In this document: positions 7,949-62,061 of the stretch, one piece after another
Position numbering within the stretch: position 1 is the stretch's first letter
How the letters are laid out: every line of letters begins with the position of its first letter
Origin: an uncultured Muribaculaceae bacterium
GTDB lineage: Bacteria; Bacteroidota; Bacteroidia; Bacteroidales; Muribaculaceae
Direction: 5' to 3'
DNA length: 64,000 bases
NCBI GenBank assembly: GCA_947628305.1
Contig: CANQZG010000008.1
Coordinates: forward strand, 62,001-126,000
Translations under genes and position numbers: made by a program
The notes under the pieces: model-generated
Told to the model about the DNA's origin: nothing
What the model saw: only the letters and a program-made list of their open reading frames with translations
Database searches by the model: none

Positions 7949-10398
7949 TCACGGAGGTTCGTGCGTGGGACGATTGGTTCGAACTCTGCGGCGAACTGAA
8001 AGAACCTGTCGCGCAGTATGAAGAGTACGCTTACGCGTTGCTGTCGCTGTTCCATCACAGAAAGGACCCGCGGCTGACGGAAAAGGAGCTTGACGCGTAT
8101 AAGCATGAGGATATGAAGCGGACGTTCTATAAGAAGCCGCCGGGAGGCGCGAAACGGCTCGCCGTGCACGCGCTGAAGCGCCGCCTCGGGTGGTTTGCCG
8201 TTCTGCCCGTTCTGTATATCGTGCTATTCGTGTACAGGCTGTTCCGGGACGGTTTCGGCGAGGCTGGCGCGTCGGCTGTCGGCGTGATCCTGCCGACGGT
8301 ATTGCTCGGGCTGGGCGTCATCGCGTTCGTCTGGGCGTGCGCGTTCATGCATATGCTGATGAAATGGAAATCGCTTTCGCGTAAGCTGTCGGCGCTTGAA
8401 GAGCTGATCACGGATCAGGTGCGATGGGTGCCGCCGAAGTATCGCAACAGTTTTTGCGTCGAGCAGCTGCACAAGCTGTGGCAGGATTATTCGGATATGA
8501 CGTTTAGCGAAGCATGCGAGTCGGTGGACGCGCATTTGCGCAAGTACGGCTTGCGGACGCGATTTAAGAGCGTCCTGTTCGATGTGCCGTATCAGAAATC
8601 CGAATATACCGGCGACGCGCCGAATACGCAAAAGCCGTATGAGCCAACGTCCGACGAAGAAAAGACGGCGGCAAATAATCCGAATCTTCCGCCGGACATT
8701 GCGTCGAAGACCTTTTCGGGGTCGGAAGACGCCGAGGCGGAACTCGCCGAGATGGTCGGGATGGAATCCGTAAAAGACCAGCTTAAACGCATGAAAAACC
8801 GCATTTCGTTTTACGGTTCCAGCAACGCCGGAGGCGGACAACACATCGCGTTTCTGGGCGCGGCGGGCACCGGAAAGACGGTCACGGCGCGCATCGTTAC
8901 GCGGATCCTCTATGATTTCGGCTATATCAAAGAGAATAAATGCGTTGAGATCGACGGCGATTACTTAAAGTCGCCTTATGTCGGGCAGACCGGCGAGCGT
9001 ACCGCGGCGATCGTTCAGTACGCCATGGGCGGCGTGCTGTTCATCGACGAGGCATATTTGCTGTACGATAAGAACAACGCAACGGCGGGCGAAGCCGTCG
9101 GCGTGCTTCTGAAGGCGATGGAGGACAACAGAAAGGATTTCGTCGTGATCTTCGCGGGGTATTCCGATCAGATGAACCGTCTGCTCAATATGAACGAAGG
9201 CTTCGCGTCGCGCATCAAGTATCGCATCTATTTCGACGACTATACGGTCGACGAACTGTGGCAGATCTTCATGCTGTTCGTCGACAAATACACGCACGGG
9301 AAAGCCTATGTCGTGGACGAGGCGGCGGAAAAGCTGGTGCGTCAGCAGTTCGCGATCGAAAAGAGCCTGCCGCATTTCGGTAACGCGCGTACGGCGCGGA
9401 ACGCCGTGGATGCCATCATGGATTATCATGCCGATAACTGTATGTCGGGCGTCAACACGAAGGATCAGGAGTCCCGCATCACCGAGGCGGACGTCCGTCT
9501 GTGGCTTGCCGACAGAGCGGCGGAGACGGCGAACGACACGCGCAATTTCGTCGGCGCGTCCGATATGGACGAGAGCATTATCACGACGGCGGAATTGAAA
9601 CGGCATGACAGGGACGGCGCGTCGGAGCCGGAAAAGGCGCTTAAAGGGTTTATCGGTCTGGAAAAGGTCAAGGACGAGCTCGAACACATTAAGGCACAGG
9701 CGGACTTTTACGGAGAGGGACAGCCCGTCGGGAATCTGTTCTTTGTCGGTCCCCCGGGAACGGGAAAGACGTCCGTTATGCCGGTCGTTACCGGGTATCT
9801 GTATCAGTTGGGATGCATTCGAGATAACCGCTATGTGTCCGTCACGGGCGATTTCCTGCGCGGTATCTACGTCGGACAGACGGGACGGCGCGTGCAGGCG
9901 GTCGTACAGTACTCTCTCGGCGGCGTCCTGTTTATCGACGAGGTCGCCGCGCTGTGTAATCCCGAAGCGGACGATTCGTTCGCAAACGAAGCGTTCACGG
10001 TGCTTCAGCAGGCTATGAGCGAGCATGAGGACGATCTGACCGTCGTGTTCGCGGGTACGTCCGAAGAGATCGACTATGTGTGCCGCGCGAATCCGGGTCT
10101 GGAAGGGCTGGTCCGGCAGACGCTTCACTTTACGCCGTTCACGGCGCGCGAGCTGTGCATGATCTTCAAGAAGTACGCCGCCGCGAACAAGTTCACGGTG
10201 GACGAAGCGGTCTGGGCGCCGCTGCAGAAGTACTTCACGGAGCAAATGCGGACGTCCGGTTTCGGCAATGCCCGGGTGGCGCAAAAATTGTTCGAAGACA
10301 GCCGGAAGTATCACATCAGGACGTTTGCGGGCGACGTTTCGTCGAAGTTCGTTATCGGGCTTCGCGACGTTAACGCGGTCATTGAACGCGTTCGGTAG
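7945..10398 (+). CDS. Membrane-anchored protein with two CbbX/SpoVK-like AAA+ domains
   Basis: Two TM-like segments; two Walker A (GAAGTGKT, GPPGTGKT) and two Walker B (GGVLFIDEAY, GGVLFIDEVA); 'YVGQTGERT..IVQYAMGGVLFIDE' as in CbbX/SpoVK/EccA. Confidence 0.85.
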   Translation: MITEVRAWDDWFELCGELKEPVAQYEEYAYALLSLFHHRKDPRLTEKELDAYKHEDMKRTFYKKPPGGAKRLAVHALKRRLGWFAVLPVLYIVLFVYRLFRDGFGEAGASAVGVILPTVLLGLGVIAFVWACAFMHMLMKWKSLSRKLSALEELITDQVRWVPPKYRNSFCVEQLHKLWQDYSDMTFSEACESVDAHLRKYGLRTRFKSVLFDVPYQKSEYTGDAPNTQKPYEPTSDEEKTAANNPNLPPDIASKTFSGSEDAEAELAEMVGMESVKDQLKRMKNRISFYGSSNAGGGQHIAFLGAAGTGKTVTARIVTRILYDFGYIKENKCVEIDGDYLKSPYVGQTGERTAAIVQYAMGGVLFIDEAYLLYDKNNATAGEAVGVLLKAMEDNRKDFVVIFAGYSDQMNRLLNMNEGFASRIKYRIYFDDYTVDELWQIFMLFVDKYTHGKAYVVDEAAEKLVRQQFAIEKSLPHFGNARTARNAVDAIMDYHADNCMSGVNTKDQESRITEADVRLWLADRAAETANDTRNFVGASDMDESIITTAELKRHDRDGASEPEKALKGFIGLEKVKDELEHIKAQADFYGEGQPVGNLFFVGPPGTGKTSVMPVVTGYLYQLGCIRDNRYVSVTGDFLRGIYVGQTGRRVQAVVQYSLGGVLFIDEVAALCNPEADDSFANEAFTVLQQAMSEHEDDLTVVFAGTSEEIDYVCRANPGLEGLVRQTLHFTPFTARELCMIFKKYAAANKFTVDEAVWAPLQKYFTEQMRTSGFGNARVAQKLFEDSRKYHIRTFAGDVSSKFVIGLRDVNAVIERVR

Positions 10399-12592: not shown

Positions 12593-14257
12593 ATGGCAAG
12601 AACAAGAGACGCTACCATTCGGGAAGTCACGCAGACATATCTGTCCGCATTGGATACGGCGAACCCGCCCGACGAAACGGTCGTCGCGGCGGACTTACTG
12701 GAACAAGTCAACGCGGTGCTGGAAATCGAGAACGCGTCGCGCCCCAGAGGACAGAAATGGCAGTTGCTGACGGCGCTTACGGCGGCGCAGATCGCGGACA
12801 TCATTATGGCGTGCTATCACGTCGTTAATATCGACATGCTCGCTGCGTCCGGCGGCAGAGCCATGACGGACCAGACGCTGCTCGCGTATTACGCGCCGAG
12901 CGGGGAGTCCGAGGGGATTTATGTTTCCGACGAAGCGAAGTTCCGGCAGATCGCGAAAGCATATTCGTATAATATCACGGAGCGGGACTTGGCGCGGGTC
13001 ATGCAGATCCTGCACGACGAGTCGCCTGTCGTGAAGCGCACGGATAATCGCGACTTCGTTCCTCTCGCGAACGGGGTGTTCGATTACGCGTCGAAAACGC
13101 TTCTGCCGTTTTCGCCGGAATACGTCTTTATTGCGAAGGCGGCGGTCGGCTACAATCCGCTTGCGGTCAATCCGACGCTACATAACGCCGACGACGGAAC
13201 GGATTGGGACGTCGAAAGCTGGATGCAGGGTCTGTCGGACGATCCGAACGTCGTGGAACTGCTGTGGAAGCTCATTGGCGCCACGCTGCGACCGTTCGTC
13301 TCATGGAATAAAGCCGCATGGTTTTATTCCGAGACCGGAAACAACGGGAAAGGGACGCTGTGCGCGTTGATGAAGAATATTCTCGGTGAGAAAGCGTATA
13401 CATCCATTCCGCTGTCGGATTTCTCGAAGGAGTTTATTCTCGAAGGTCTGACGCGGGTATCGGCGATCATCACGGACGAGAACGACGTGGGCGTGTTCAT
13501 TGACAAAGCAGCGAACCTGAAGGCGATCATCACAGGGGACAGCATTCTGATCAATCGAAAGTTCAAAAATTCCGTTTCGTATATGTTCCGCGGCATGATG
13601 GTGCAGTGCGTCAACGAGCTGCCCCGCGTCAAGGATAAGTCCGAGTCGTTTTACAGGCGGCAGCTGGTGGTTCCGTTCTCGAAATGCTTCACGGGGCAGG
13701 AGCGGAAGTATATCAAGGACGAGTATCTGCGCAGGCAGGACGTGCTGGAATACGTCGTGGCAAAGGTGCTGAATATGGATTACTATGACTTGCCCGAACC
13801 GGCGGCATGCGTCAGGCTGTTGTCCGAGTATCGCGAGTACAACGATCCTGTCAGGCAATTCGTCAGCGACGTGTTCCCGCAGTTGCGCTGGGATCTGCTT
13901 CCGTATACGTTCCTGTATGATCTATATAAGGCATGGTTCCGGGAGGCGTCGCCGTCCGGGCAGATGCAGGGACGGAATACGTTCGTGATGGACCTGATGC
14001 ATGCATTACACGGAAATTCGTCGTGGGCATGCGGCAGTCCACAGGCGAAGATCCGGTCGAAGGACCGCATGAACGGTCCGGAGCCGTTGATCGCACGGTA
14101 CAATCTGAAGGAATGGTTCAATCCGAATTACGCCGGACATGATACGGATAAGTTGTGTCTGCCGCCGTTACGGGATAATTACGCGGGAGTGCAGCGCGTC
14201 GTGCCGTCAGGGCTGTATATCGCAGCAAGCGATGAAGACGACGAAGAAGAAGGGTAG
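12593..14257 (+). CDS. Phage/plasmid P4-type (D5/SF3) replicative helicase
   Basis: 'AWFYSETGNNGKGTLCALMKNILGEKAYTSIPLSDFSKEF' Walker A, 'IITDEND', 'FKNSVSYMFRGMMVQCVNELPRVKDKSESFYRR'. Confidence 0.85.
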   Translation: MARTRDATIREVTQTYLSALDTANPPDETVVAADLLEQVNAVLEIENASRPRGQKWQLLTALTAAQIADIIMACYHVVNIDMLAASGGRAMTDQTLLAYYAPSGESEGIYVSDEAKFRQIAKAYSYNITERDLARVMQILHDESPVVKRTDNRDFVPLANGVFDYASKTLLPFSPEYVFIAKAAVGYNPLAVNPTLHNADDGTDWDVESWMQGLSDDPNVVELLWKLIGATLRPFVSWNKAAWFYSETGNNGKGTLCALMKNILGEKAYTSIPLSDFSKEFILEGLTRVSAIITDENDVGVFIDKAANLKAIITGDSILINRKFKNSVSYMFRGMMVQCVNELPRVKDKSESFYRRQLVVPFSKCFTGQERKYIKDEYLRRQDVLEYVVAKVLNMDYYDLPEPAACVRLLSEYREYNDPVRQFVSDVFPQLRWDLLPYTFLYDLYKAWFREASPSGQMQGRNTFVMDLMHALHGNSSWACGSPQAKIRSKDRMNGPEPLIARYNLKEWFNPNYAGHDTDKLCLPPLRDNYAGVQRVVPSGLYIAASDEDDEEEG

Positions 14258-15673: not shown

Positions 15674-16758
15674 TTTCCACAAGCATTCTTTTCGTGCTGA
15701 TCCTTGTCGTAGCGGTCGCCGTGATCATTATCCGCAACATTCGTATCGTGCCGCAGGCGCACTGCGAAGTGCTGGAACGTCTCGGCAAGTTTTCGGGGAT
15801 CAAGCATGCGGGATTGTATATCAAGATGCCTTTTATCGAAAAGGTCGTATCCCGCGTATCGTTGAAGGAACAAGTCCTTGATTTTCCGCCGCAGGCGGTC
15901 ATCACGAAAGATAACGTCACGATGTCTATCGACTCGGTCGTTTACGCGAAGGTCTTCAATCCCCAGCTTTATGTTTACGGTATCGAGAATCCCATCAGTG
16001 GTCTGCAGAATCTCGCCGCGACGACGCTTCGTTCGATCATCGGCGATATGGAACTCGACCAGACGCTGACGTCCCGCGAGCAGATCAACTCCAAGATGGA
16101 AGCGGTGCTTGACGCCGCGACCGACGAGTGGGGCATCAAGGTCGTCCGCGTTGAGATCAAGACCATTCAGCCGCCGCATGAGATCGAAGAGGTCATGACG
16201 AAGCAGATGCGCGCGGAGCGTGAACGCCGTCAGACGGTGCTGGAAGCGCAGGCGCATCAGGAAGCCGCCGTCACCCGTGCAAAAGGCGATAAAGAGGCGA
16301 AGATCCTCGCGGCGGAAGCCGAGAGGGACGCACAGGTGGCTCTCGCCGAAGGTCGCGCCCGCAGTATCCAGCTCGTGTACGACGCGGAAGCGGAAGGCGT
16401 GCGGAAGCTGTCCGCGGCGAACATCAGCGAGAACGCCTTACGCTGGAAAGGCATCGGCGCGTTGAAGGACGTCGCCGACGGCAGGGCTACCAAGATCTTT
16501 ATGCCGTCGGACATCGCGTCCGCGGTGTCCGCCCTCGGCGTCGCCGGGGAAGCGCTCGGTATCGGCGCGGCTATGCCCGTGAACACATCGGCGCGTGAGC
16601 AGGAAAAGCTCACGGACGACTGCTGCGACGACGAGCCGCGCAGTAAGGTCACGAAAGAAGTGTCGCGCAAGCAGGCGCAGGTCGAGAAAGACCTCGGGAA
16701 ATCCGTCGGCGAACGCGTCCGGGAGCATCGCGATCAAGCCTTCGGCGACGAACGGTAA
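15670..16758 (+). CDS. SPFH/Band 7 (stomatin/prohibitin-like) protein
   Basis: N-terminal TM then 'IVPQAHCEVLERLGKFSGIKHAGLYIKMPFIEKV...VVRVEIKTIQPPHEIEEVMTKQMRAERERR'. Confidence 0.9.
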   Translation: MISTSILFVLILVVAVAVIIIRNIRIVPQAHCEVLERLGKFSGIKHAGLYIKMPFIEKVVSRVSLKEQVLDFPPQAVITKDNVTMSIDSVVYAKVFNPQLYVYGIENPISGLQNLAATTLRSIIGDMELDQTLTSREQINSKMEAVLDAATDEWGIKVVRVEIKTIQPPHEIEEVMTKQMRAERERRQTVLEAQAHQEAAVTRAKGDKEAKILAAEAERDAQVALAEGRARSIQLVYDAEAEGVRKLSAANISENALRWKGIGALKDVADGRATKIFMPSDIASAVSALGVAGEALGIGAAMPVNTSAREQEKLTDDCCDDEPRSKVTKEVSRKQAQVEKDLGKSVGERVREHRDQAFGDER

Positions 16759-16770
16759 GGCGGTACGGAT

Positions 16771-17790
16771 ATGAGCAGAGGCGGCGGTCACAGCGGCGGT
16801 TCCTCTTCGCACGGCGGCGGAAGCTCGCATATGCATTCTTCTTCCGGCGGGCACAGCAGAGGGTATTCGTCATCGTCTTCTACGCGCTCTTCGCATACGT
16901 CCCGCGCATCGCACGGCGGATCCCGATCCGGTTGGCGCGGGCGTCCGTACACGCGCACGTATTACCGCCACGGCGTTCCGTATACGCGGACGGTCTACAC
17001 GCGTCCGCTTGGGTGCGTGTCGGTGTTCATCATCTGCTTTACGCTGCTGTTCATTTTCATGCTCGCTCGCGGGTGCAGCTCTTCCGGGAGCGCGGATGCG
17101 GAGCCGAGGTCGACGCTTGAGCGTCATCCTCTTTCCGCAAGCGCGTGCGGAGAGATCGACGTCTGGTACGAAGAGCATATGAGCGATCGCTGGATCAATA
17201 ATACGTCGGTCCTCAAGCAGGGTCTGGAGCATTTCTACGACGTGACCGGCGTGCAGCCGTACGTCGTCATCGTCGAGTCGATCCCCGACGTGAACGGATG
17301 CCCGACGGATAGTGAATTTACGAACTATCTGAAGGACGTGTATGACGACGTGATGCCCGACGGCGGACATCTTGTCATCGGCATATTCGATAACAGCGGC
17401 GTCGTCTCGGGCGATTATGATTGGGGCTTCGGCTGTTACGCGGGAAAAGACGCGGAGACGGTCATGGATCCGGAAGCGCGTGAGATCCTGCTCGATCATC
17501 TTGAACGGTATTATACCGACGACAGCTTGACGGACGAAGCGTTCCTCGCGCGTGCGATCTCCGAAACCGGCGATAAGATCATGACGGTGGACAAAGTCCA
17601 GTCGTCAAACGTGAAGACGATCGTTATCGTGCTTTCGTGCGTGGCAGTTGTTGCGCTTGTTGTCTGGTTCGTGATCCGCCGCAAGAAATTGCGCGTGGAA
17701 CAGGCGGAAGCCGATGCGGAGATTCTCGGGAAGGACCTCGGTTCGTCATCCGACGGCGATCCGCTGAAGGACAAATACAATGTTCCGTAA
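16771..17790 (+). CDS. Membrane protein with TPM-like domain and Ser/Gly/His-rich N-terminus
   Basis: Low-complexity N-terminus, TM, 'HFYDVTGVQPYVVIVESIPDVNG...LKDVYDDVMPDGGHLVIGIFDNSG' TPM-like, second TM. Confidence 0.65.
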   Translation: MSRGGGHSGGSSSHGGGSSHMHSSSGGHSRGYSSSSSTRSSHTSRASHGGSRSGWRGRPYTRTYYRHGVPYTRTVYTRPLGCVSVFIICFTLLFIFMLARGCSSSGSADAEPRSTLERHPLSASACGEIDVWYEEHMSDRWINNTSVLKQGLEHFYDVTGVQPYVVIVESIPDVNGCPTDSEFTNYLKDVYDDVMPDGGHLVIGIFDNSGVVSGDYDWGFGCYAGKDAETVMDPEAREILLDHLERYYTDDSLTDEAFLARAISETGDKIMTVDKVQSSNVKTIVIVLSCVAVVALVVWFVIRRKKLRVEQAEADAEILGKDLGSSSDGDPLKDKYNVP

Positions 17791-18670: not shown

Positions 18671-19381
18671 ATGGCAAAGAATACGTTTTATGCGGTGCAG
18701 AAGCATCCGGATCCGACGAAGGTCGGTATTTATTCGTCGTGGACGGCATGCGAAGCCGTGGTCAAAGGCGTTCCCGGCGTGATTTACAAGGGATTTGCTA
18801 CGGAAGTCGAGGCGACCGCTTTTTTAGGCAAGGACGGTTACGACCCGAAGCCGAAGCCCGCTGAGATCAAGGTCCCCGATACGCCTTATGCGTTCGTAGA
18901 CGGTTCCTATAATCCGAATACCGGCGTCGCGGGCTACGGCGGGTTCCTCTACGGTCCGCTGCGTTCCGACGGCACGCGTGTGCAGATGTTGGTGCTGGGG
19001 ACCGTGTCCGACAAAGAGTTCTGCAAACAGCGGAATGTCGCCGGAGAAGTCGCGGGCGCGACGCGCGCCGTTGAGCTTGCGCGGGAACGCCGCTACGATG
19101 ATCTGACGATCATTCATGACTACATGGGTATCGCGTCGTGGGCGAACGGCTCGTGGAAGGCGGGCAACGCGTACACGCAACGGTATGCCGCCTCCGTGCT
19201 GGACGCGCGGGCGGACGGCATGCAGATCCGCTTTGTACACGCGCAGGCACACACGGGGATCGAGGGCAACGAGATGGCGGACAGACTCGCCAAGGAAGCC
19301 GTCGGTGTGTCTGCTGGAGTACATGCGCCGTCGGTAGACTTCTCGGGCGTTGAAAGGACGGACGCGGCATGCGAGTATTGA
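18671..19381 (+). CDS. Ribonuclease HI with N-terminal viroplasmin-like domain
   Basis: 'YAVQKHPDPTKVGIYSSWTACEAVVKGVPGVIYKGFATEVEATAFL' and 'AFVDGSYNPNTGVAGYGGFL...HAQAHTGIEGNEMADRLAKEA'. Confidence 0.9.
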   Translation: MAKNTFYAVQKHPDPTKVGIYSSWTACEAVVKGVPGVIYKGFATEVEATAFLGKDGYDPKPKPAEIKVPDTPYAFVDGSYNPNTGVAGYGGFLYGPLRSDGTRVQMLVLGTVSDKEFCKQRNVAGEVAGATRAVELARERRYDDLTIIHDYMGIASWANGSWKAGNAYTQRYAASVLDARADGMQIRFVHAQAHTGIEGNEMADRLAKEAVGVSAGVHAPSVDFSGVERTDAACEY

Positions 19382-19934: not shown

Positions 19935-22412
19935 TTGGATATGAGAGGGCTTTTTGTGAACGGAACTGTTATGTTGAAGAAAGTCGAATCCCTGCTTGCC
20001 CGCGGGTATATGCGCGTGCGGGTACAGCAGATGTTCCGCGGCGGGCAGAAGCCGGACGGATGGTTCGGCTGTTTTGCGACGATCTATGAGTATCCGCATG
20101 ATCGGTTTCGTTTGACAGGCGTCTGCGCGGATTCCGTCGCTACGGATTGTTATCTGCTGGTCAAGGGAAAGCTGACGATGTCGAACGGGTATGAACAGGT
20201 GGCTTGTTCTCAAGTGCTTCTGGACGTTGACGACTACAACGGCATTATCACGTTTCTTTCCGGCAGGCGGTTTCCGCGTGTCGGTCGCGTCGAGGCTGTG
20301 CGTATGTATACGGCATACGGCAATATGCTGTTGCGTAAGATTCTGGAAGATCCGGATGGCGTAAGGACCAAGGCGGGCTTGTCAAAGGATCTGATGCGGG
20401 ACATCGTTGACGGCATGCGCATGCGGAACGTCGAGCAGTATCTTCAGCAGACGCTGCCCACACTGTCGGAGAAGTATTTAGGGCGTATCCTGCGGTCGTA
20501 CCGGGGAAACGTCGTCAATATCATTCAAGAGGATCCGTATCGACTGCTGGACGCCGGTGTTCCGTTCAAGATCGCCGACGGCATCGCCCTGCAGGCGTTG
20601 CATATGCGTCCCGACGCGCCGGAACGCATCGGGAACGGCATTGTCTATGTCATGAAAGACTTGCTGAACGGGGATACATATCTGAATCTGTCGGAGAACG
20701 ACGTTTTTACGTCGCTGTATGAACGAACGACGGAATTACTGGGTCTGCAGTGCGACAGGGTCGCGTTCGCGGACATGATCCGCAACGCTTGCGCGAAGAA
20801 GGCGTCGCTGTTGACCTTGCGCGTCGAGAAGGGCGAGAACCATCTGTATCGTTCCGACACGTATATCAACGAGCTGCGCATCACGACGTTCGTCAATGAA
20901 AGTCATCTTGTGCCGTTGGCGTCGGATCCTTCGACGGCGATCGTCTGCTACGAAGGCTCCCGCGGTAAATTGTTGACGGACGAACAGCGGAACGCCGTGC
21001 GTACGGCGGCGATGAACGGTCTGTCGTGCATCACCGGCGGACCCGGTCGCGGAAAGACGTTTGCCATTGATTGCCTCGCTTATGTGTTCCGGACGCGTCA
21101 TGTTGTGTCGTCCGCATCGCTTCGTTCGCATGTCGGCGCGACGGTGCTGCTCGCGCCTACCGGCAAGGCGGTCCGCCGTCTGCGGCAGTTGCGCGTGTGC
21201 CGTGATATGGACCTGCCCGTGTATACGATCGCAAAGTTTTTGCAGATCGCGAATGCCAACAAGTATATGTTCTCGTCGGTGGAGCATTTCATCGTCGACG
21301 AGGCATCCATGGTGTCGACGGACGACATGGGGCAGTTGATGATACACATGCAGGCGTATCGCCGCGACGGGTCGCGGGCGACGCTGACGCTGGTCGGCGA
21401 CGTCGATCAGTTGCCGCCCGTGGACGTCGGGTGTCCGTTCCGGGATATTCTTACGTCGGGAATGACGCCTGTGGCGTCTTTGACGGCGAATCTGCGGACG
21501 GATGCGCCGTCGATCGCAGAGAACGCCGACCGTGTGCGTGCCGGGGACGTCCGTCTGAAGTCCGCGTTGACATCGGACGGGGCTATCGAGTCCGTATTGG
21601 TCCCGACGGGCGACGACGAGGCGTCGCTGAAATACGTGCTGAATTTTTATAAGACGGCGCTGCTGCAGAACGATTTGAAAGACGTCGCGGTGCTGTCGCC
21701 CGTGAATAAGGGACCCGTGGGCGTCAGAGCGTTGAACATCACGCTGCAGGATCTTCTGAATCCGTCCCGGCAGGCGGTTTTTACGGCTGTCCCTTCCCCG
21801 GGGTATCCTATGGCGAGGACGCGTTGCGATACGCGGGGCGCGAGCGTTCCGGGGTTGTTCTATCGCGAGAGCGAAGAGAACCGGACGACCGTTCGCGTAG
21901 GCGACCGCGTGATGCTGACGAAGAATTGCGACAGTATCGAGTATTTTTACGTCGACAGGGAGTGCATGGTCAATCCCGACGCCGTGCCGACGTTCGATCT
22001 GATGAAGCCTGTCGTAGACAGGGACAGCGGCGTGTGCAACGGGGATTGCGGCGTCGTGCTGGACTTTACGCCCGCCGACGGCAATTGTCTGCTTGCGGTG
22101 ACGATTGGACTTGACGACGGACGCATCGCGCGGGTGACCGAGGACTTCTTTGAGCATGTCGCGTTAGCGTACGCGATGACGGTCCATAAGGCGCAGGGGT
22201 GCGAGTACGACACGGTCCTTTACGTCAGTCCGCGGCGTCTGCTGTCGACGCCCGGAGGGTTTGCAAGCAGAAATCTTGTATACACCGCGCTGACGCGCGC
22301 CAAGTCGTGCATGGAGATCATCGGTTCCAAGGAAGCGTTGGATCGGTGCATTCTGACGCCGTCGGCAGACAGGCATTCGATGCTGAAAGACCGCTTGAAC
22401 GATGTGATTTGA
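19935..22412 (+). CDS. RecD2/TraA-like SF1B DNA helicase
   Basis: 'LTDEQRNAVRTAAMNGLSCITGGPGRGKTFAIDCL', 'FIVDEASMVSTDDMGQL', 'LVGDVDQLPPVDVGCPFRDIL', 'AYAMTVHKAQGCEYDTVLY'. Confidence 0.9.
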   Translation: MDMRGLFVNGTVMLKKVESLLARGYMRVRVQQMFRGGQKPDGWFGCFATIYEYPHDRFRLTGVCADSVATDCYLLVKGKLTMSNGYEQVACSQVLLDVDDYNGIITFLSGRRFPRVGRVEAVRMYTAYGNMLLRKILEDPDGVRTKAGLSKDLMRDIVDGMRMRNVEQYLQQTLPTLSEKYLGRILRSYRGNVVNIIQEDPYRLLDAGVPFKIADGIALQALHMRPDAPERIGNGIVYVMKDLLNGDTYLNLSENDVFTSLYERTTELLGLQCDRVAFADMIRNACAKKASLLTLRVEKGENHLYRSDTYINELRITTFVNESHLVPLASDPSTAIVCYEGSRGKLLTDEQRNAVRTAAMNGLSCITGGPGRGKTFAIDCLAYVFRTRHVVSSASLRSHVGATVLLAPTGKAVRRLRQLRVCRDMDLPVYTIAKFLQIANANKYMFSSVEHFIVDEASMVSTDDMGQLMIHMQAYRRDGSRATLTLVGDVDQLPPVDVGCPFRDILTSGMTPVASLTANLRTDAPSIAENADRVRAGDVRLKSALTSDGAIESVLVPTGDDEASLKYVLNFYKTALLQNDLKDVAVLSPVNKGPVGVRALNITLQDLLNPSRQAVFTAVPSPGYPMARTRCDTRGASVPGLFYRESEENRTTVRVGDRVMLTKNCDSIEYFYVDRECMVNPDAVPTFDLMKPVVDRDSGVCNGDCGVVLDFTPADGNCLLAVTIGLDDGRIARVTEDFFEHVALAYAMTVHKAQGCEYDTVLYVSPRRLLSTPGGFASRNLVYTALTRAKSCMEIIGSKEALDRCILTPSADRHSMLKDRLNDVI

Positions 22413-23880: not shown

Positions 23881-23909
23881 TTGACTTTTCACGCGGTCCG
23901 TGCTATAAT
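23881..23909 (+). promoter_or_regulatory. SigmaA-type promoter
   Basis: ttgact-17-tataat, overlaps the ORF-track N-terminus of the RNAP ORF. Confidence 0.75.
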
Positions 23910-24042: not shown

Positions 24043-27000
24043 ATGAGCGTTACGTTGCGCTATTTCAATGAGTACGTCTATTACAGAGCCGTAACGAATT
24101 TAGGAAAATACCGTGCGGAAAACGGCGGGGAGCCGTTGACGACGTCGCAGGCGCGCGCGTTGCGCACGGCTGTCGGGAAAGCTCTTGAACAAAATTCCGT
24201 GACGGTCGCCACGGCGAACAAGACGGCGATGTTCTCGGCGCTTCGCGAAGCGTTCGGTCCGGACGGCGCGTCGGCGTTTACCGACGCGGATTATACGGAT
24301 GCCGTCGGGACGTTTTCCCGGTTTACCGGCATCGCGTCCGCTTCGGGATCTCGCGACGGGGCGACGACGTTCGCGGACCCCGTCGTTCCGCTGTCGCCGT
24401 ACGACCCCGCGCATGCGCTCCGGGACGCGTTCATGCGGAACGGATCGCAGTTGCTTTTCGCGAGACGCGGCGATATTATGACCGACAGGCAGACGCCTGC
24501 CGAGATCGATCCGTCGACGGTCCCGCTGCAGACGGCTCGCGGACTGCAGACCGCGAACGGACACGATCCGTGGAGCACGCGTCTGCGTTTGCTTTCGTCT
24601 GCGGATAAGTCCGGCGCGTCAATGCTTGCGCCGTATATGTCGCAGGAAGAGTACGAGACGGCGTCTGCGTGGATGGAACGCGCCGGGGAAGACGACGAGA
24701 CGAAATTCATGTCCCTTCAGGCGCTTCGGAAGAGCGCCGGACTGCTTCGCCTGATGAAGGAAAACGGAATCTCTTATGAGATCCTCGCCGACGATAATCC
24801 CGGACAGCTGCGCGCCCGCATCACGGGGACGCGCACCAGCGTCCGCATCGCGGATACGCGGGATAACGAAGCGTATATCGGACGCGTATACGATAACGGG
24901 ATCGTGTATCGGTATATGACGAATAAGCCTGTCGCGCAAGACGTGCGGTTGACCGAAGGGTATACGCCGCGGAATGCACAGGAGTGTTTTGATTTGCTGC
25001 AATACGCGATGGGGCATTCGGTGCGCCGCTGGGACGACAGCGCGAACGTCGGCGAAGCGACGGACGTCCTGTCGCGCCGTCAGCGCTGGACGAACGGCGA
25101 GAAGCGCTTTGCGTCCGTGCGTGTGAATCAGTCTTACCATTCGGCACAGAACGCGTCGTATTTCATCGGCGCTCTGCCGTCGAACGAGCGCTACAGCGTT
25201 TTGCTTCATGCGGATTATCAGCGCGGGCGCGAGCTGGTCCATTTCAGTACCCCGTCCGCCGCGGAACAGTATCTGAAGGACGCCGTGTCGTCGGCGCGGG
25301 ATGCGTTCGCACAGGATGTGCGGCTGGACGAGTTGATCGCCGCGGCGGCGGAGCATAAAGACGATGAAGATTACGCGTTTGATTTCAGCGGCGACGAGGT
25401 CGTCGCGTCCGTACAGAGGGGTTACTGGGATATTCTGACCTCGAAGGAACCGCTGGAGGTGTATCACCCCGGCGCGAAGTATGATGCGTATCTGGAAGGG
25501 CTGGACGAGAGCGACGACGACGTCGCCGAGGCGGTATCGCTGCGTGATGTTCCGACTTATGAGGGAACGCCCGAGGAGAAGGTCCGTCAGCACATGGCGG
25601 ATAATCTGGATTATTTCATCGGTACGTTTGAGCCGGACGCGGAAGGTCTGCGGTTCGATCCGACGCGCGTCAGTCAGTATATGTCGTCGGCATACAGCAT
25701 GTTCTCGAATGAGCGGAACATGATCCGCGTGCTCCGCGCGTGCGATATTCCTGCCGAAGCATTGCGCGGGAATCATTACTACACGTCATACGTCAAGGAT
25801 AATCTGATCAAGTTCGACCCGTCGACGGCTTTGCCGATGTGCAAGTCGGAGAGTCCGTTTGTAAAGCGGACGTTTGAGAAGATCGCCTCAACGATCCGTG
25901 AGTCCGGCTGCGAGCTGGACGACGAGGCGGTACTGATGGATGCACAGGGCATCGTGCATTATACCGCGAGCAGGATCACCGGGCGGAACGTGACGGACAG
26001 CAAGGGGAATCCGAATAAGAAGACGTTCGAGGGGGAAATCGGTCAGGTGTTTATTCCCCGAGAGGACGGTATGATCGAGACGCAGTTTGCCGGTACGGAT
26101 AATTACTTGTTCGTGCCGGGATACGAAGCGTCGGTCGTGACCGGCGCGTCTACCGCCGGACAGACGCTGGAGCAAAGGACACGTCTGCGCGGGTATGAAC
26201 AGATCCTGCACGACGAGATCGCGCACACGCTCCGCGGCGACCTGATGCTGACGGACGCCGAGGTCGGTTCGCCCGCCGTGCTGAACAGCACGTACCGGCA
26301 CATGTACGGCGAACGGCATCCGCTGGATTGGGTCGAGCAGACGACGGAAGAGGGCATGGACGACGCGCTGCGCAACGCAATTATTCAGACCGAGGCGCGT
26401 CGCGTGAAGTACGACGGCATGTTCCGCGAAGGGTCTACGGTCAACGCGGACTATCGTGCGAACCAGTATGCGCAACCGGGCGACATCATCAACGATAACT
26501 TCTATAGCGCCTACGACGCGTCCGGGCGGCGCAATATGGCGTTGCTTTCGGAGGAAGGCAACGGGTATTTCGATAAGACGATGACCTCTTCGGGCATGGA
26601 GCAGGGCATGACGCGGTATCTGTGCGAAGGCACGGAAGTATTGCCCGACGGGTCGATGAAGCCGTCCGATAAGGGCGACGCCGTGCCGTTGATGAAGCAT
26701 GACGCGTTCCGTTTTGCCGAGTTCGATCCGTGGGATCGTCTGTTGATGACGTCTATGAACGCCATCAAGGCGTCAAGCATCACGAAGCCGTCGAAGGTCG
26801 CGCTGGTGACGTTGGACGGGCTGAACAGCAACGACGGGTTCATCGTCAGCAGTGCGTTCGCGGAAGCGAATCAGATCCGTTTGCCGAACGGATTGATCCG
26901 TCCGTTGCAGAAAGGCGATAAGATCTCGGATATGCATGGCAACAAGGGCGTCATTTCCGTGGTCGTCGATCCGGAAATGGACCCCGAGGAGGCGAAGGAG

Positions 27001-55500: not shown

Positions 55501-55634
55501 TGGTGCGGACGGCAGGATTCGAACCTGCAGATAACGAAAGAATGGAGGTTTTGACAACATGGAAACAGATGCGTACTTTACAGAAGTATTGTCATGAGGG
55601 AAAAAGTTGCGTCTTCCAGTTGCGCCACGTCCGC
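55501..55634 (-). other. tRNA-like gene with abnormal central insertion
   Basis: Acceptor GCGGACG/CGTCCGC + ACCA, D-stem GCG/CGC, T-arm GCAGG-TTCGAAT-CCTGC; total 134 nt, no canonical 7-nt anticodon loop. Confidence 0.6.
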
Positions 55635-55800: not shown

Positions 55801-56494
55801 CACGGTTAAGTGGACTGTTTCTTGCCCCGTAAGGCTATCGTGTACAGTCTCTGCATTCAGAAAGATACTTTAAGGTGTACCCGAAAACGCATTTGCGTTT
55901 TGCTTTCAGTTTCTGTCGAATAGTCTCGTAAGAGACGTTCGGGATCTTCTTTGAAAGCCATCGTGCACATGCGGCGTAGGACTCGAACGCAACGATTTCG
56001 CCGTCACGGCAGAGCGAGACGGGCTTTTTCTGTTCGGCGGTCCGTTCGCCTTCGGCGACGTACCGCAGATTACGGTAGTCGTTGTTGTGTTCATTGTCGT
56101 CGCGGTGTTCGGTCTTGTATCCGGCAGAGCGGGGTCCGAGCCAGCATTCCGCGACTGCGTTGCAGATCGGAATGTGTACGATTCGCGCGTGCGGTCCGCG
56201 TCCGCCGAGACGCACCGAAGCGACGTATCGGTTTGCCGTTTCGTCAAGTCTGATTTGGCATTGTTTTTTCGACTTGACGTTGCGGAAGATGGCGCCGTTT
56301 TCGTTGACTTCGTAGAGGAAGTTGAGCGAGGGTATCTTTCTGAACTCAAGGTTTGCATTTGATTGCATCTCTTGATGCCTCCTGAATTATGATTTTACTT
56401 CTGACCCCTGATGGGAGTCCGGTTCAGGAAACTTCTACAGTTTTCGTAGAATTTACGATAATTGTCGGGCATTTCCGTGGCGATTCGTTGGATA
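55801..56494 (-). other. Intron 3 of nrdD, carries HNH endonuclease ORF
   Basis: Exon-terminal T, intron-terminal G; removal restores RRVTGYLTGDYL reading frame. Confidence 0.75.
55835..56368 (-). CDS. HNH-type homing endonuclease inside nrdD intron 3
   Basis: 'HARIVHIPICNAVAECWLG...KTEHRDDNEHNNDYRNLRYV' HNH-like; C-terminal DNA-binding-like repeat. Confidence 0.75.
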   Translation of the reverse strand: MQSNANLEFRKIPSLNFLYEVNENGAIFRNVKSKKQCQIRLDETANRYVASVRLGGRGPHARIVHIPICNAVAECWLGPRSAGYKTEHRDDNEHNNDYRNLRYVAEGERTAEQKKPVSLCRDGEIVAFESYAACARWLSKKIPNVSYETIRQKLKAKRKCVFGYTLKYLSECRDCTR

Positions 56495-58243: not shown

Positions 58244-58514
58244 CGTTATGTTCACATGAAGTCGTTACTTTCATGCAGTTCTCTTATGAACTTCTCTGTC
58301 TTTCGACAGATGGTCAGACTATATCTTCACCCCATGCGAATGGGCATGGGGGGCTGCCGTTTCGAGCCACTTGGCTCTACTCCACGTTGGATGTGAATAG
58401 TCGTTCGGCGTTGCCCGTCACAGACGGGTTTAGCACAGGATCGTCTCGAATGAGAGAGTTTCCCTGTTTAGGCAGCTATGTTCCCTGCATTACTGCAAGG
58501 TCGCCCCAACATTA
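58244..58514 (-). other. Intron 1 of nrdD, ORF-less group I intron
   Basis: - strand 'GCCGAACGACTATTC' (R) and 'GAAGATATAGTCTGA' (S); exon-terminal T, intron-terminal G. Confidence 0.85.
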
Positions 58515-59413
58515 AGGTTGTGGAACATCGCTTCGGTCGCCTGCTTGACCTCTTCGTTTGTCTGCTCGATGGCGTAACGGTAGACGTCAGGCTGGTTGCA
58601 GTAGAGCGGATCGGTGATGCTTCGCGTCGTGTCTGAAATCTTGAAGTCGGGCTGGTTTGCGATGAATTTCATGCCGACTTTGAAGTGTTTCGCGAAGGAC
58701 TTGCGGACGTAAGGCACCATTGTCCAGTCGAGGTGGGATGCCGCGACGCCTCCGAACTGGCAGAGGCTCTGCAATTGGAAAAGTACCGCGACGAGCTGCA
58801 TCGCCGACTTGACTGACCCGGCGGGTCGGACGTCGGTTTGACGCGTGGTGAACCCTTCGGCAAGAAGTCTGTCGAGGGGTACGGTGAGACAGTTGTGAAG
58901 TCCGACGGCGTAGGAATCGAGGTCGTGGATGTAGATCTCGTTGTTGTCATGGTGCTTTCGCGCCATTTTCGACACGAGATTCGTCAACGCGTACTCTTTC
59001 GCGACAAGACTTCGGGCTTCGCCCATGCGCCCGCCGAAGGACCGTTCGTCAAGGTTGGCGTTCTGGTTCTGGACGTTCGTCGCGAGGAGTTTTTCGCCGA
59101 TTTGTTTCATCAGCGACGAGGTCTTCTCACGTTCTCGCGTCCGTTCGTTTCGGTAGGTGATGTAGGCGCGCGCGACGTCTTTGCGGTCGGATGACATCAG
59201 TTTGTCTTCGACCATGTCTTGGATCTGTTCGACGTTAAACACGCGTCCTTGTTCGGCACATTCGCGCTCGATCTCGCAGGCGATATTCTCGGCGAGCAGC
59301 TTGCTGTTCGCGGTAATGCGACCGTCTACGGCACGGATAGCTTTCTTGATCGCCTCCGTGATGCGGTTTGTGTCGAACGAGACTTCGCGACCGTCCCGTT
59401 TGATGATTGTCAT
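58515..59413 (-). CDS. nrdD: NrdD exon 1 (anaerobic ribonucleoside-triphosphate reductase, N-terminus with ATP-cone)
   Basis: 'MTIIKRDGREVSFDTNRITEAIKKAIRAVDGRI ... EIYIHDLDSYAVGLHNCL'. Confidence 0.9.
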
Positions 59414-60371: not shown

Positions 60372-60659
60372 TCAGGAAGCAAGTCCTTCGGACAGAACAG
60401 CTTCGTAGTAGTCGTATTCGTCCTTAAATGTGTCGTCCGTCTTGAAATCCTGCAGGGTATCGAAAATCTTGTCGACGATGTCTGCTATAGAGACGTTCGA
60501 CACGTATGCGTCGGGCTCCAGATTCGGCGCTTCGTCGGTGTCGAAATAGAACCACCATTCTCCGATTTGACAGACAGTCCCGGCGCCTTCGTTCGGGTCG
60601 GTTACGAGTTGAACGAGATGCTTTGCAAGTCCGTCGGCGATCATTTGCTTTGTGATCAT
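60372..60659 (-). CDS. Uncharacterised small acidic protein
   Basis: Start MITKQMIADGLAKHL with RBS. Confidence 0.55.
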   Translation of the reverse strand: MITKQMIADGLAKHLVQLVTDPNEGAGTVCQIGEWWFYFDTDEAPNLEPDAYVSNVSIADIVDKIFDTLQDFKTDDTFKDEYDYYEAVLSEGLAS

Positions 60660-61342
60660 GAGGATCCTTCCTTTCTTTCTCGCATGAGAAGTTTGTATGG
60701 ACAGCGTACCGATACGATACGCGGGTTGGTGTTCGTTCTGCATGTATCGAACGCTTCTTTGTCGACACAGAAGCACGGGCAGCCTTTGGAGTAGTCGTTC
60801 CGGAAGTACGACGGACTGTCCGGCGCGACGGTCGTGTCAGGACATGTTGCGTCCGTGACGGAGAAGTACGGGCGACAGATAGGTTTATCGTTATGCTTCG
60901 GAAGCAACGTGATGATGTTCCATGTGCGTTCAAGGCTTGACATCGGAATGACGCCGTCGATCGGCTGCGGTTCTTCGGCGAAGTGTTCCCGGAAGCGTTC
61001 CCAGTTGACTTTGTCGGGGTCCGCCGCTTCGGATACCTGTCGGAAATACGGACACGACGGCAGGAATTCTTCGAGTGTCTGTCGGATCTTGCTGTAGAGT
61101 TTTTCGGCGTCGCATGTGATTTCGTATTTGCCTTGCGCTTGTCTTTGTTCGCAAGAGACGGACTTGACCAGCCGTCGGATCTGTTCCGTCGCGCCTTTGG
61201 TATCATGTTTTGCGATCGTGACGACGATGTCGAGGACTTGTTCGCGAATCTCGTGGTTGCGCTGCAGGGCAAACGCGTCGAAGGCGTCGTCTTGATAAGG
61301 TCTGTCTGTTGTTGTACAAGGGTATTTCGGGTATACCTTCAT
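60656..61342 (-). CDS. Cys-motif paralog 2, uncharacterised
   Basis: 'ICRPYFSVTDATCPDT ... CPCFCVDKEAFDTC...VRCPYKL'. Confidence 0.65.
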   Translation of the reverse strand: MKVYPKYPCTTTDRPYQDDAFDAFALQRNHEIREQVLDIVVTIAKHDTKGATEQIRRLVKSVSCEQRQAQGKYEITCDAEKLYSKIRQTLEEFLPSCPYFRQVSEAADPDKVNWERFREHFAEEPQPIDGVIPMSSLERTWNIITLLPKHNDKPICRPYFSVTDATCPDTTVAPDSPSYFRNDYSKGCPCFCVDKEAFDTCRTNTNPRIVSVRCPYKLLMRERKEGSS

Positions 61343-61362
61343 TGTTTCCCTTCTTTCTTTTT

Positions 61363-62061
61363 TTAATTCGGGCAGGTGCAGTGCCTCTGACGGCATCGTC
61401 CGACGGCGTAGCACGGCTTGCGGGTGCCGTCGTCTTTGACGGCGAAGTAGGGGATGCACGGCGGGACGTCGTACCGCAGCATGCAGGTATAGACGGATGC
61501 GAGGATGATTTGCATCGGAACGTCTTCGCCTTCGATAGAGATGTGTACCCCGATGCGCTGTCGGATGTCGTGCAGGATGGCGTCAAGGCGATTGGGGATC
61601 ATGACGTGTTCTTTTGTGAAATACTTTTCGCCGAGTTCGCCGAGATCATTTTTATCGGCGCATACTGCGACGACGACGTCGAGGAGCGCTTTTTGAATTT
61701 CCGTTTCGGAGGTCCCTGCGATCAACGCTTGCAGGAGGCGGAACGCGGCAGCGTTCTGCTCGCGGGTGACACGGTCGCAGAAATCCTCGAAGGTGTCTTT
61801 CGGCAGGTGTCGGGCGACGGATACGTCCTTAAAGAAGATGATCTGGTTATCTTTGCCGTCAGGCACGATGTCCGTCACTTCGTCTACGCCGAAGAAGTCG
61901 GCGACGGCGCGGTATATCTCCGCGATGGCGCTGTGCCAGTCGCCGGGATGCGACGCACGGTCGCACGCGTCGAATTTCGTATGGGTCATGACGATGAAGC
62001 CGTATAGCGCGTTTTTGATGCGAAAGCAGGCTTCAAGGTTGTTTTCGTTAAGGTTTCGCAT
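61363..62061 (-). CDS. Cys-motif paralog 3, uncharacterised
   Basis: 'PPCIPYFAVKDDGTRKPCYAVGRCRQRHCTCPN'. Confidence 0.65.
   Translation of the reverse strand: MRNLNENNLEACFRIKNALYGFIVMTHTKFDACDRASHPGDWHSAIAEIYRAVADFFGVDEVTDIVPDGKDNQIIFFKDVSVARHLPKDTFEDFCDRVTREQNAAAFRLLQALIAGTSETEIQKALLDVVVAVCADKNDLGELGEKYFTKEHVMIPNRLDAILHDIRQRIGVHISIEGEDVPMQIILASVYTCMLRYDVPPCIPYFAVKDDGTRKPCYAVGRCRQRHCTCPN

What the first reader, a model, noticed from the sequence alone, without database searches (positions are those of the whole stretch)
24043..29595. Single-chain RNA polymerase with both beta-type and beta'-type catalytic motifs on a mobile element
One ~1850-aa ORF contains 'KGDKISDMHGNKGVISVVV', matching the beta-subunit GDK..RHGNKGV motif with its two lysines, and about 440 residues later 'EGDFDGDTVGIMVLHTPSAQKEA', matching the beta' NADFDGD Mg-binding loop. 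The order is the same as in cellular beta-beta', so this looks like a self-contained two-barrel RNAP. Such single-chain polymerases are known in outline (for example phage YonO, crAss-like phage RNAPs), but this one is large and sits beside conjugation-type and replication genes. Which promoters it reads and when is unknown.
Basis: partly seen in the sequence, partly recalled or inferred. Interest (0 to 1): 0.92.

Follow-up and report, generated by a model that had tools for sequence, protein, structure and literature searches.

The report
Conjugative plasmid's own RNA polymerase
A large conjugative element carries its own one-piece RNA polymerase next to its DNA-transfer genes, and in this element and in distant staphylococcal relatives a set of hairpin DNA signals in front of early genes looks like the promoters it reads, which would be a new way for a plasmid to switch on its genes in a new cell.

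Summary
In detail: an unbroken ORF (true start ATG 24043; the upstream TTG is part of a sigma-70 -35 box) encodes a single-chain two-barrel RNA polymerase with the beta lysine motif and the beta' DFDGD triad. An AlphaFold model of the core (pLDDT 86) finds bacterial beta' as its best PDB matches. It has many full-length relatives in Actinomycetota and Bacillota, is absent from 50,697 phage records, and is undetectably similar to YonO. It sits in a conserved conjugation module, MobL relaxase > ClpB-like ATPase > T4CP > RNAP: 35 of 36 genome loci with enough upstream sequence have the T4CP beside it. Here the T4CP is split by intervening sequences and 17 kb is inserted before the RNAP. New lead: minus-strand genes of this contig, ssb included, carry a hairpin + CGGGTA 32-46 nt before the start codon, on one strand only; RNAP-carrying staphylococcal plasmids have a different-sequence hairpin + TAGATA in the same place, also before ssb, and in 72,556 plasmids strong matches occur only in those five. 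sigma-A promoters are missing there but present before tra-side genes. I propose these are the RNAP's promoters (about 0.5). The contig is probably misbinned in a Bacteroidales MAG.

The parts
24043..29595 (+). single-chain two-barrel RNA polymerase (1850 aa)
26911..26967 (+). beta-type motif KGDKISDMHGNKGV (two conserved lysines)
28270..28338 (+). beta'-type Mg-binding loop EGDFDGD
23881..23909 (+). sigma-70 promoter of the RNAP gene: TTGACT-17-TATAAT
   Evidence: (direct reading)
1615..1704 (+). T4CP coding piece (30 aa) between two insertions
   Evidence: tblastn with three T4CPs
5393..5515 (+). T4CP coding piece (41 aa)
5998..7128 (+). T4CP C-terminal part; N-terminal parts lie left of the window at contig C8:59121-60158 and 60547-61962
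7945..10398 (+). AAA ATPase (two AAA, AAA_lid_6) in the segment between T4CP and RNAP
12593..14257 (+). D5-like primase-helicase (DUF5906, Pox_D5)
18671..19381 (+). RNase H1-like protein
19935..22412 (+). RecD2-like helicase
30387..31760 (+). gene g70, the conserved neighbour downstream of the RNAP in most relatives
33837..33860 (-). candidate hairpin promoter (GGCGCCG-TTC-CGGCGCC + CGGGTC), 39 nt before the start of the gene 33484-33798
55883..55905 (-). hairpin + CGGGTA (AAAACGC-AAAT-GCGTTTT), no start codon in range; weak

Best explanation
The protein is a DNA-dependent, single-chain RNA polymerase of the two-barrel (cellular) kind and a standard part of a MobL/T4CP conjugation module. Its own gene and the transfer-side genes are switched on by host sigma-A polymerase. 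The element's polymerase then transcribes a separate set of 'establishment' genes of the element, oriented against the transfer genes and including ssb, from promoters made of a short hairpin (6-10 bp stem, 3-5 nt loop) followed by a conserved stretch (CGGGTA..AAAAAG here, TAGATA..AAAA in staphylococci) about 30-46 nt before the start codon. This would give the element its own expression of early genes in a new host. Shown by sequence or model: RNAP fold, catalytic motifs, module membership, hairpins, their strand bias, spacing and co-occurrence. Inferred: that it is catalytically active, that it reads these hairpins, and when. Step confidences: RNAP 0.97; conjugation-module component 0.92; reads the hairpin promoters about 0.5; acts in the recipient soon after transfer about 0.35.
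For: RNAP. Module: T4CP next to the RNAP in 35 of 36 genome loci with at least 5 kb upstream, and in 4 of 5 plasmids looked at; ClpB-like ATPase and g50-like gene before it, g70-like gene after it; MobL in 19 of 22 of these genomes. Here: MobL 3e-55, T4CP 4e-7. Hairpins in C8: 9 of 21 CGGGTA on the minus strand directly follow a perfect hairpin (background 0.8%, binomial 2e-14) against 0 of 60 on the plus strand (Fisher 1e-6); in an unbiased scan of all 6-mers after hairpins CGGGTA on the minus strand ranks first (p 3e-8), AAAAAG second. Staphylococcal RNAP plasmids: about 20 hairpin + TAGA sites, nearly all on the strand opposite to the RNAP and tra genes, mostly 29-40 nt from the start, stem with 5 of 9 pairs compensated. 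ssb is preceded by the hairpin in all four such elements. Strong matches to the staphylococcal motif in 72,556 plasmids fall only in the five Staphylococcus plasmids that carry the RNAP. C8 hairpin genes score 7-8 for a sigma-A promoter, while about half of the plus-strand genes score 10-13. Terminators end about 15 nt before several staphylococcal hairpins, leaving no room for another promoter. Lactococcal RNAP plasmids have another repeated upstream motif, GGATAGTTTAAGTG (8 of 16 upstream regions, 0.25 expected), including before the RNAP gene.
Against: No such motif was found in the actinobacterial elements tested, although most relatives live there. Co-occurrence within staphylococci may only reflect shared descent. 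Only 5 of 11 hairpin + CGGGT sites in C8 have a start codon in range. A regulator, or a host factor acting on RNA, could use the same hairpins. pLS20, another MobL plasmid, transfers the non-template strand of its establishment genes, so the incoming strand itself may not be the template. No transcript data exist.
Confidence: 0.55

Rival explanations
1. The RNAP transcribes the transfer (tra) operon or its own operon in the donor, like a phage late RNAP such as YonO, and the hairpins are unrelated.
For: In lactococcal plasmids the repeated non-sigma motif lies before the RNAP gene itself and before other element genes on both strands. Close linkage to T4CP.
Against: In C8 about half of the plus-strand (tra-side) upstream regions, and the RNAP gene, have clear sigma-A promoters; the genes without them are the hairpin genes.
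Confidence: 0.25
2. The RNAP mainly makes primers: it primes complementary-strand synthesis on transferred single strands at hairpin sites, like Frpo/ssi sites but with its own polymerase.
For: Strand-specific hairpins, including one near the presumed mobilisation region of the staphylococcal plasmids; Frpo is known both as promoter and primer site (reference cited in PMC11541004).
Against: The tight spacing to start codons and the position after terminators argue for mRNA starts.
Confidence: 0.1
3. The hairpins are operators or mRNA leader elements used by another factor; the RNAP has some other role.
For: Palindromes are common operators; absence from actinobacterial elements.
Against: 3-5 nt loops with an asymmetric conserved 3' flank, no sigma-A promoter nearby, terminator immediately upstream; exclusive co-occurrence with the RNAP among staphylococcal plasmids.
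Confidence: 0.2
4. An inactive relic or a non-transcribing protein.
For: No biochemical data.
Against: Catalytic residues invariant across relatives down to about 31% identity and intact reading frames in nearly all.
Confidence: 0.03

Closest known systems
Cellular multisubunit RNAP (beta and beta')
   Same: Both double-psi-barrel motifs, order beta then beta', switch-2-like region and bridge-helix-like GAKGS align with Rpb1/beta'
   Different: One chain, no alpha, omega or sigma found with it, about 620 aa of unassigned N-terminal part, borne by a conjugative element
YonO of SPbeta (PMC5467207)
   Same: Single-chain two-barrel RNAP with the aspartate triad, on a mobile element
   Different: 839 aa phage enzyme for late genes; no profile similarity to this family (hhalign probability 0.2%)
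P23-45 tape-measure RNAP and crAss-like phage RNAPs (PMC10770324)
   Same: Two-barrel RNAPs encoded by mobile DNA; P23-45 found by the family profile at 3.5e-8
   Different: Phage-borne; this family gave no match in 50,697 phage records
Phage N4 virion RNAP (PMC4496689)
   Same: Proposed use of short-stem, small-loop hairpin promoters for early genes, with a link to SSB
   Different: N4 vRNAP is a T7-type polymerase packaged in the virion; here the fold is beta/beta' and delivery is unknown
Frpo/ssi single-strand promoters and EGeRS1 of pLS20 (PMC11541004, PMC8708921)
   Same: Secondary-structure signals before establishment or leading-region genes (Frpo also before ssb)
   Different: Frpo carries host -35/-10 boxes in its stem and is read by host RNAP; EGeRS1 is 400-600 bp; here 15-25 nt hairpins without sigma-A boxes, in elements with their own RNAP

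Membership tests
Two-barrel (DPBB) RNA polymerases | beta' DFDGD metal-binding triad | tested here: met
   invariant in 31 relatives; Pfam Rpb1_2 1.6e-6
Two-barrel (DPBB) RNA polymerases | beta GDK...HGNKG lysines | tested here: met
   both lysines invariant in 31 relatives; Rpb2_6 1e-4
Two-barrel (DPBB) RNA polymerases | RNAP fold around the motifs | tested here: met
   AF2 pLDDT 85.9, pTM 0.81; PDB best matches beta' at 2e-11, though the overall TM-score is low, about 0.3
Two-barrel (DPBB) RNA polymerases | bridge helix and trigger loop | tested here: inconclusive
   GAKGS region aligns weakly to the Rpb1 bridge-helix region; trigger loop not identified
Two-barrel (DPBB) RNA polymerases | template-dependent RNA synthesis | not testable with these tools
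   needs biochemistry
YonO family | sequence similarity to YonO | tested here: not met
   hhalign probability 0.2%
Phage-encoded RNAPs (crAss-like, jumbo) | carried by phage genomes | tested here: not met
   no match in 50,697 phage records; a single long hit in IMG/VR, L063, of unclear nature
N4 virion RNAP | T7/N4-type polymerase fold | tested here: not met
   similarity is to beta/beta'
N4 virion RNAP | hairpin promoters | tested here: inconclusive
   candidate hairpins found, use not shown
MobL conjugative elements | MobL relaxase | tested here: met
   PF18555 3e-55 on the same contig
MobL conjugative elements | T4 coupling protein | tested here: met
   PF02534 4e-7; most of a T4CP found in five pieces
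Frpo-type promoters | -35/-10 boxes in the stem | tested here: not met
   stems vary freely and hold no such boxes

The most novel reading that the evidence does not exclude
A conjugation counterpart of the N4 virion RNA polymerase: a plasmid-borne two-barrel RNAP, made in the donor and sent along or expressed at entry, that starts transcription at hairpin promoters of establishment genes such as ssb independently of the recipient's sigma factors.
Probability: 0.25. Interest if true: 0.94.

Novelty: new variant of a known kind. Interest (0 to 1): 0.82.

Why it matters
Conjugative elements are generally thought to rely on host RNA polymerase; I found no paper in the searched library that describes a cellular-type RNAP as a core conjugation gene. 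If it reads the hairpins, it would explain how establishment genes without sigma-A promoters are expressed in a new host and would make element expression independent of the host. It would also give single-chain, sigma-independent polymerases that are useful for studying how cellular RNAP evolved and initiates.

Tried and rejected
Single-sequence structure prediction: useless (pLDDT 35), replaced by the alignment A5. A C-terminal transfer signal shared by RNAP and relaxase: not seen. Frpo-like host promoters in the hairpins: no -35/-10 boxes. The same hairpin motif in actinobacterial, Lachnospiraceae and Oscillospiraceae elements: not found. Kin of the element among the MAG's relatives or in viral contigs: none. 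YonO relationship: no similarity. The strand transferred and oriT could not be fixed; two structured candidate regions were seen in staphylococcal plasmids, and pLS20's polarity argues against the simple 'incoming strand is the template' model. The Bacteroidales host assignment was rejected: the genome's rpoB is closest to 8dkc and 9n9p, which I recall as Bacteroidota structures (the identification is from memory), but this contig differs in tetranucleotides (r about 0.54 with the host mean, against above 0.87 for most host contigs sampled), carries LPXTG pilins and sigma-A-type promoters.

Full report
What is there. The ORF at 24043-29595 is intact. Pfam recognises the Rpb1 domain 2 and, weakly, Rpb2 domain 6. 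A profile of 40 relatives hits Rpb1/beta' in the PDB at 4e-12 and aligns a switch-2-like region ('..LM..RLPNSATAVW..'), the DFDGD loop and 'GAKGS' at the bridge-helix position. The modelled core (residues 620-1810) has pLDDT 85.9 and pTM 0.81, and its best PDB matches are bacterial beta' chains. About 620 N-terminal residues have no assigned fold.

Relatives. The search found 183 relatives, most about 1850 aa long (only the 8000 best candidates were scored). Named ones are Actinomycetota (Streptomyces, Arthrobacter, Kribbella, Nocardiopsis, Brevibacterium) and Bacillota (Lachnospiraceae, Clostridia), plus plasmids of Rhodococcus, Gordonia (pGKT2), Streptomyces, Staphylococcus and Lactococcus. 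No phage record matches. YonO is not detectably related. The family is rare: no hit in 398 other genomes sampled from the phylum of Streptomyces, and 44 loci in the whole genome collection with the patterns used.

The element. The window is part of contig C8 (150,958 bp). It carries a MobL relaxase, ClpB-like ATPases, a topoisomerase, D5-like helicases, an actin-like candidate partition protein, RecJ, ClpP, an anaerobic ribonucleotide reductase and LPXTG pilins. The T4CP is present but cut into five coding pieces by intervening sequences, three of whose ORFs match DUF7487. The contig does not match the rest of its bin in tetranucleotide use and is probably misbinned from a Gram-positive host.

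Gene order. In 35 of 36 genome loci with at least 5 kb upstream the T4CP lies next to the RNAP, mostly preceded by a ClpB-like ATPase and a g50-like gene and followed by a g70-like gene; MobL lies in 19 of 22 genomes tested, and close by in the plasmids. C8 keeps this order with 17 kb inserted between T4CP and RNAP. In the staphylococcal plasmids two genes separate T4CP and RNAP.

Candidate promoters. Plus-strand (transfer-side) upstream regions of C8 share a sigma-A promoter with extended -10, CTATTGATTTTTGT..TTTGTGcTATAAT. Minus-strand genes mostly lack one. Instead several have a perfect hairpin followed at once by CGGGTA and an A-tract. On the minus strand 9 of 21 CGGGTA have the hairpin, on the plus strand 0 of 60 (Fisher 1e-6; binomial against the 0.8% background 2e-14). 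An unbiased scan of all 6-mers after hairpins puts CGGGTA on the minus strand first (p 3e-8 before correction for about 8,000 words) and AAAAAG on the minus strand second. Five sites lie 32-46 nt before a start codon, including ssb (g16, C8:13902-14324, Pfam SSB 1.7e-7). Stems differ in sequence from site to site but pair perfectly.

Independent support. The staphylococcal RNAP plasmids have the same layout with different letters: a GTGGTTGC-like stem, mostly a 3-nt loop, then TAGATA..AAAA, mostly 29-40 nt before the start, almost all on the strand opposite to tra and RNAP, and before ssb in all three plasmids examined. Five of nine stem pairs show compensated changes; 0 of 500 shuffles match (the sequences are related, so this is a lower bar than it looks). 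Terminators end about 15 nt upstream of several hairpins. Strong BLAST matches to the motif in 72,556 plasmids are the five Staphylococcus plasmids that hold the RNAP; three further records match weakly and partly. Lactococcal RNAP plasmids carry a different repeated upstream motif, GGATAGTTTAAGTG (8 of 16 upstream regions, 0.25 expected), with 5-14 copies in the five RNAP plasmids and single matches in a few others. Nothing comparable was found in actinobacterial elements.

How it likely works. Host polymerase makes the RNAP; the RNAP reads hairpin promoters of establishment genes. N4 virion RNAP is the working precedent for hairpin promoters, with extrusion driven by supercoiling and help from SSB (PMC4496689); Frpo is the precedent for structured promoters before ssb in leading regions (PMC11541004). 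Whether the template is the incoming single strand or supercoiled double-stranded DNA is open: in pLS20 the transferred strand is the non-template strand of its establishment genes and their expression mechanism is unknown (PMC8708921). Whether the RNAP protein is itself transferred was not testable.

Novelty. Searches of the open literature found no description of this family as a conjugation component nor of these hairpins; subscription papers and preprints were not searchable, so earlier bioinformatic mentions are possible.

Noticed in passing
window 1-7128 and contig C8:59121-61962: T4CP gene split into at least five coding pieces (two of only 30 and 41 aa) by four intervening sequences, with three DUF7487 ORFs in low-GC DNA; no Rfam intron model matched.
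   Followed up: partly
window 58294-58533 (-): Group I intron (Rfam 4.9e-16) interrupting an anaerobic ribonucleotide reductase gene.
   Followed up: no
window 55504-55634 (-): 131-nt tRNA-like match, possibly a tRNA with an insertion; ARAGORN finds no tRNA.
   Followed up: no
contig C8:40747-40971 and 16700-16772: HEARO RNA and a RAGATH-18 RNA candidate.
   Followed up: no
L125/L126 (Lactococcus pJM4A): Motif AATGGATAGTTTAAGTG before 8 of 16 genes, including the RNAP relative, on both strands; possibly that polymerase's promoter.
   Followed up: partly
L119-L124 (staphylococcal plasmids): Two conserved structured regions, one near the mobilisation genes with the same stem as the hairpin promoters and one at the convergent gene junction with paired small hairpins; oriT candidates.
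   Followed up: partly
L063 (IMG/VR contig of 251 kb): Distant RNAP relative with a close D5 helicase, RNase H and g70-like gene but no T4CP in 25 kb.
   Followed up: no
contig C8 against the rest of the genome: Contig composition and Gram-positive pilins indicate misbinning into a Bacteroidales-like MAG.
   Followed up: yes
contig C8:34377-40133: 1918-aa protein with no Pfam or PHROG match in the transfer region.
   Followed up: no
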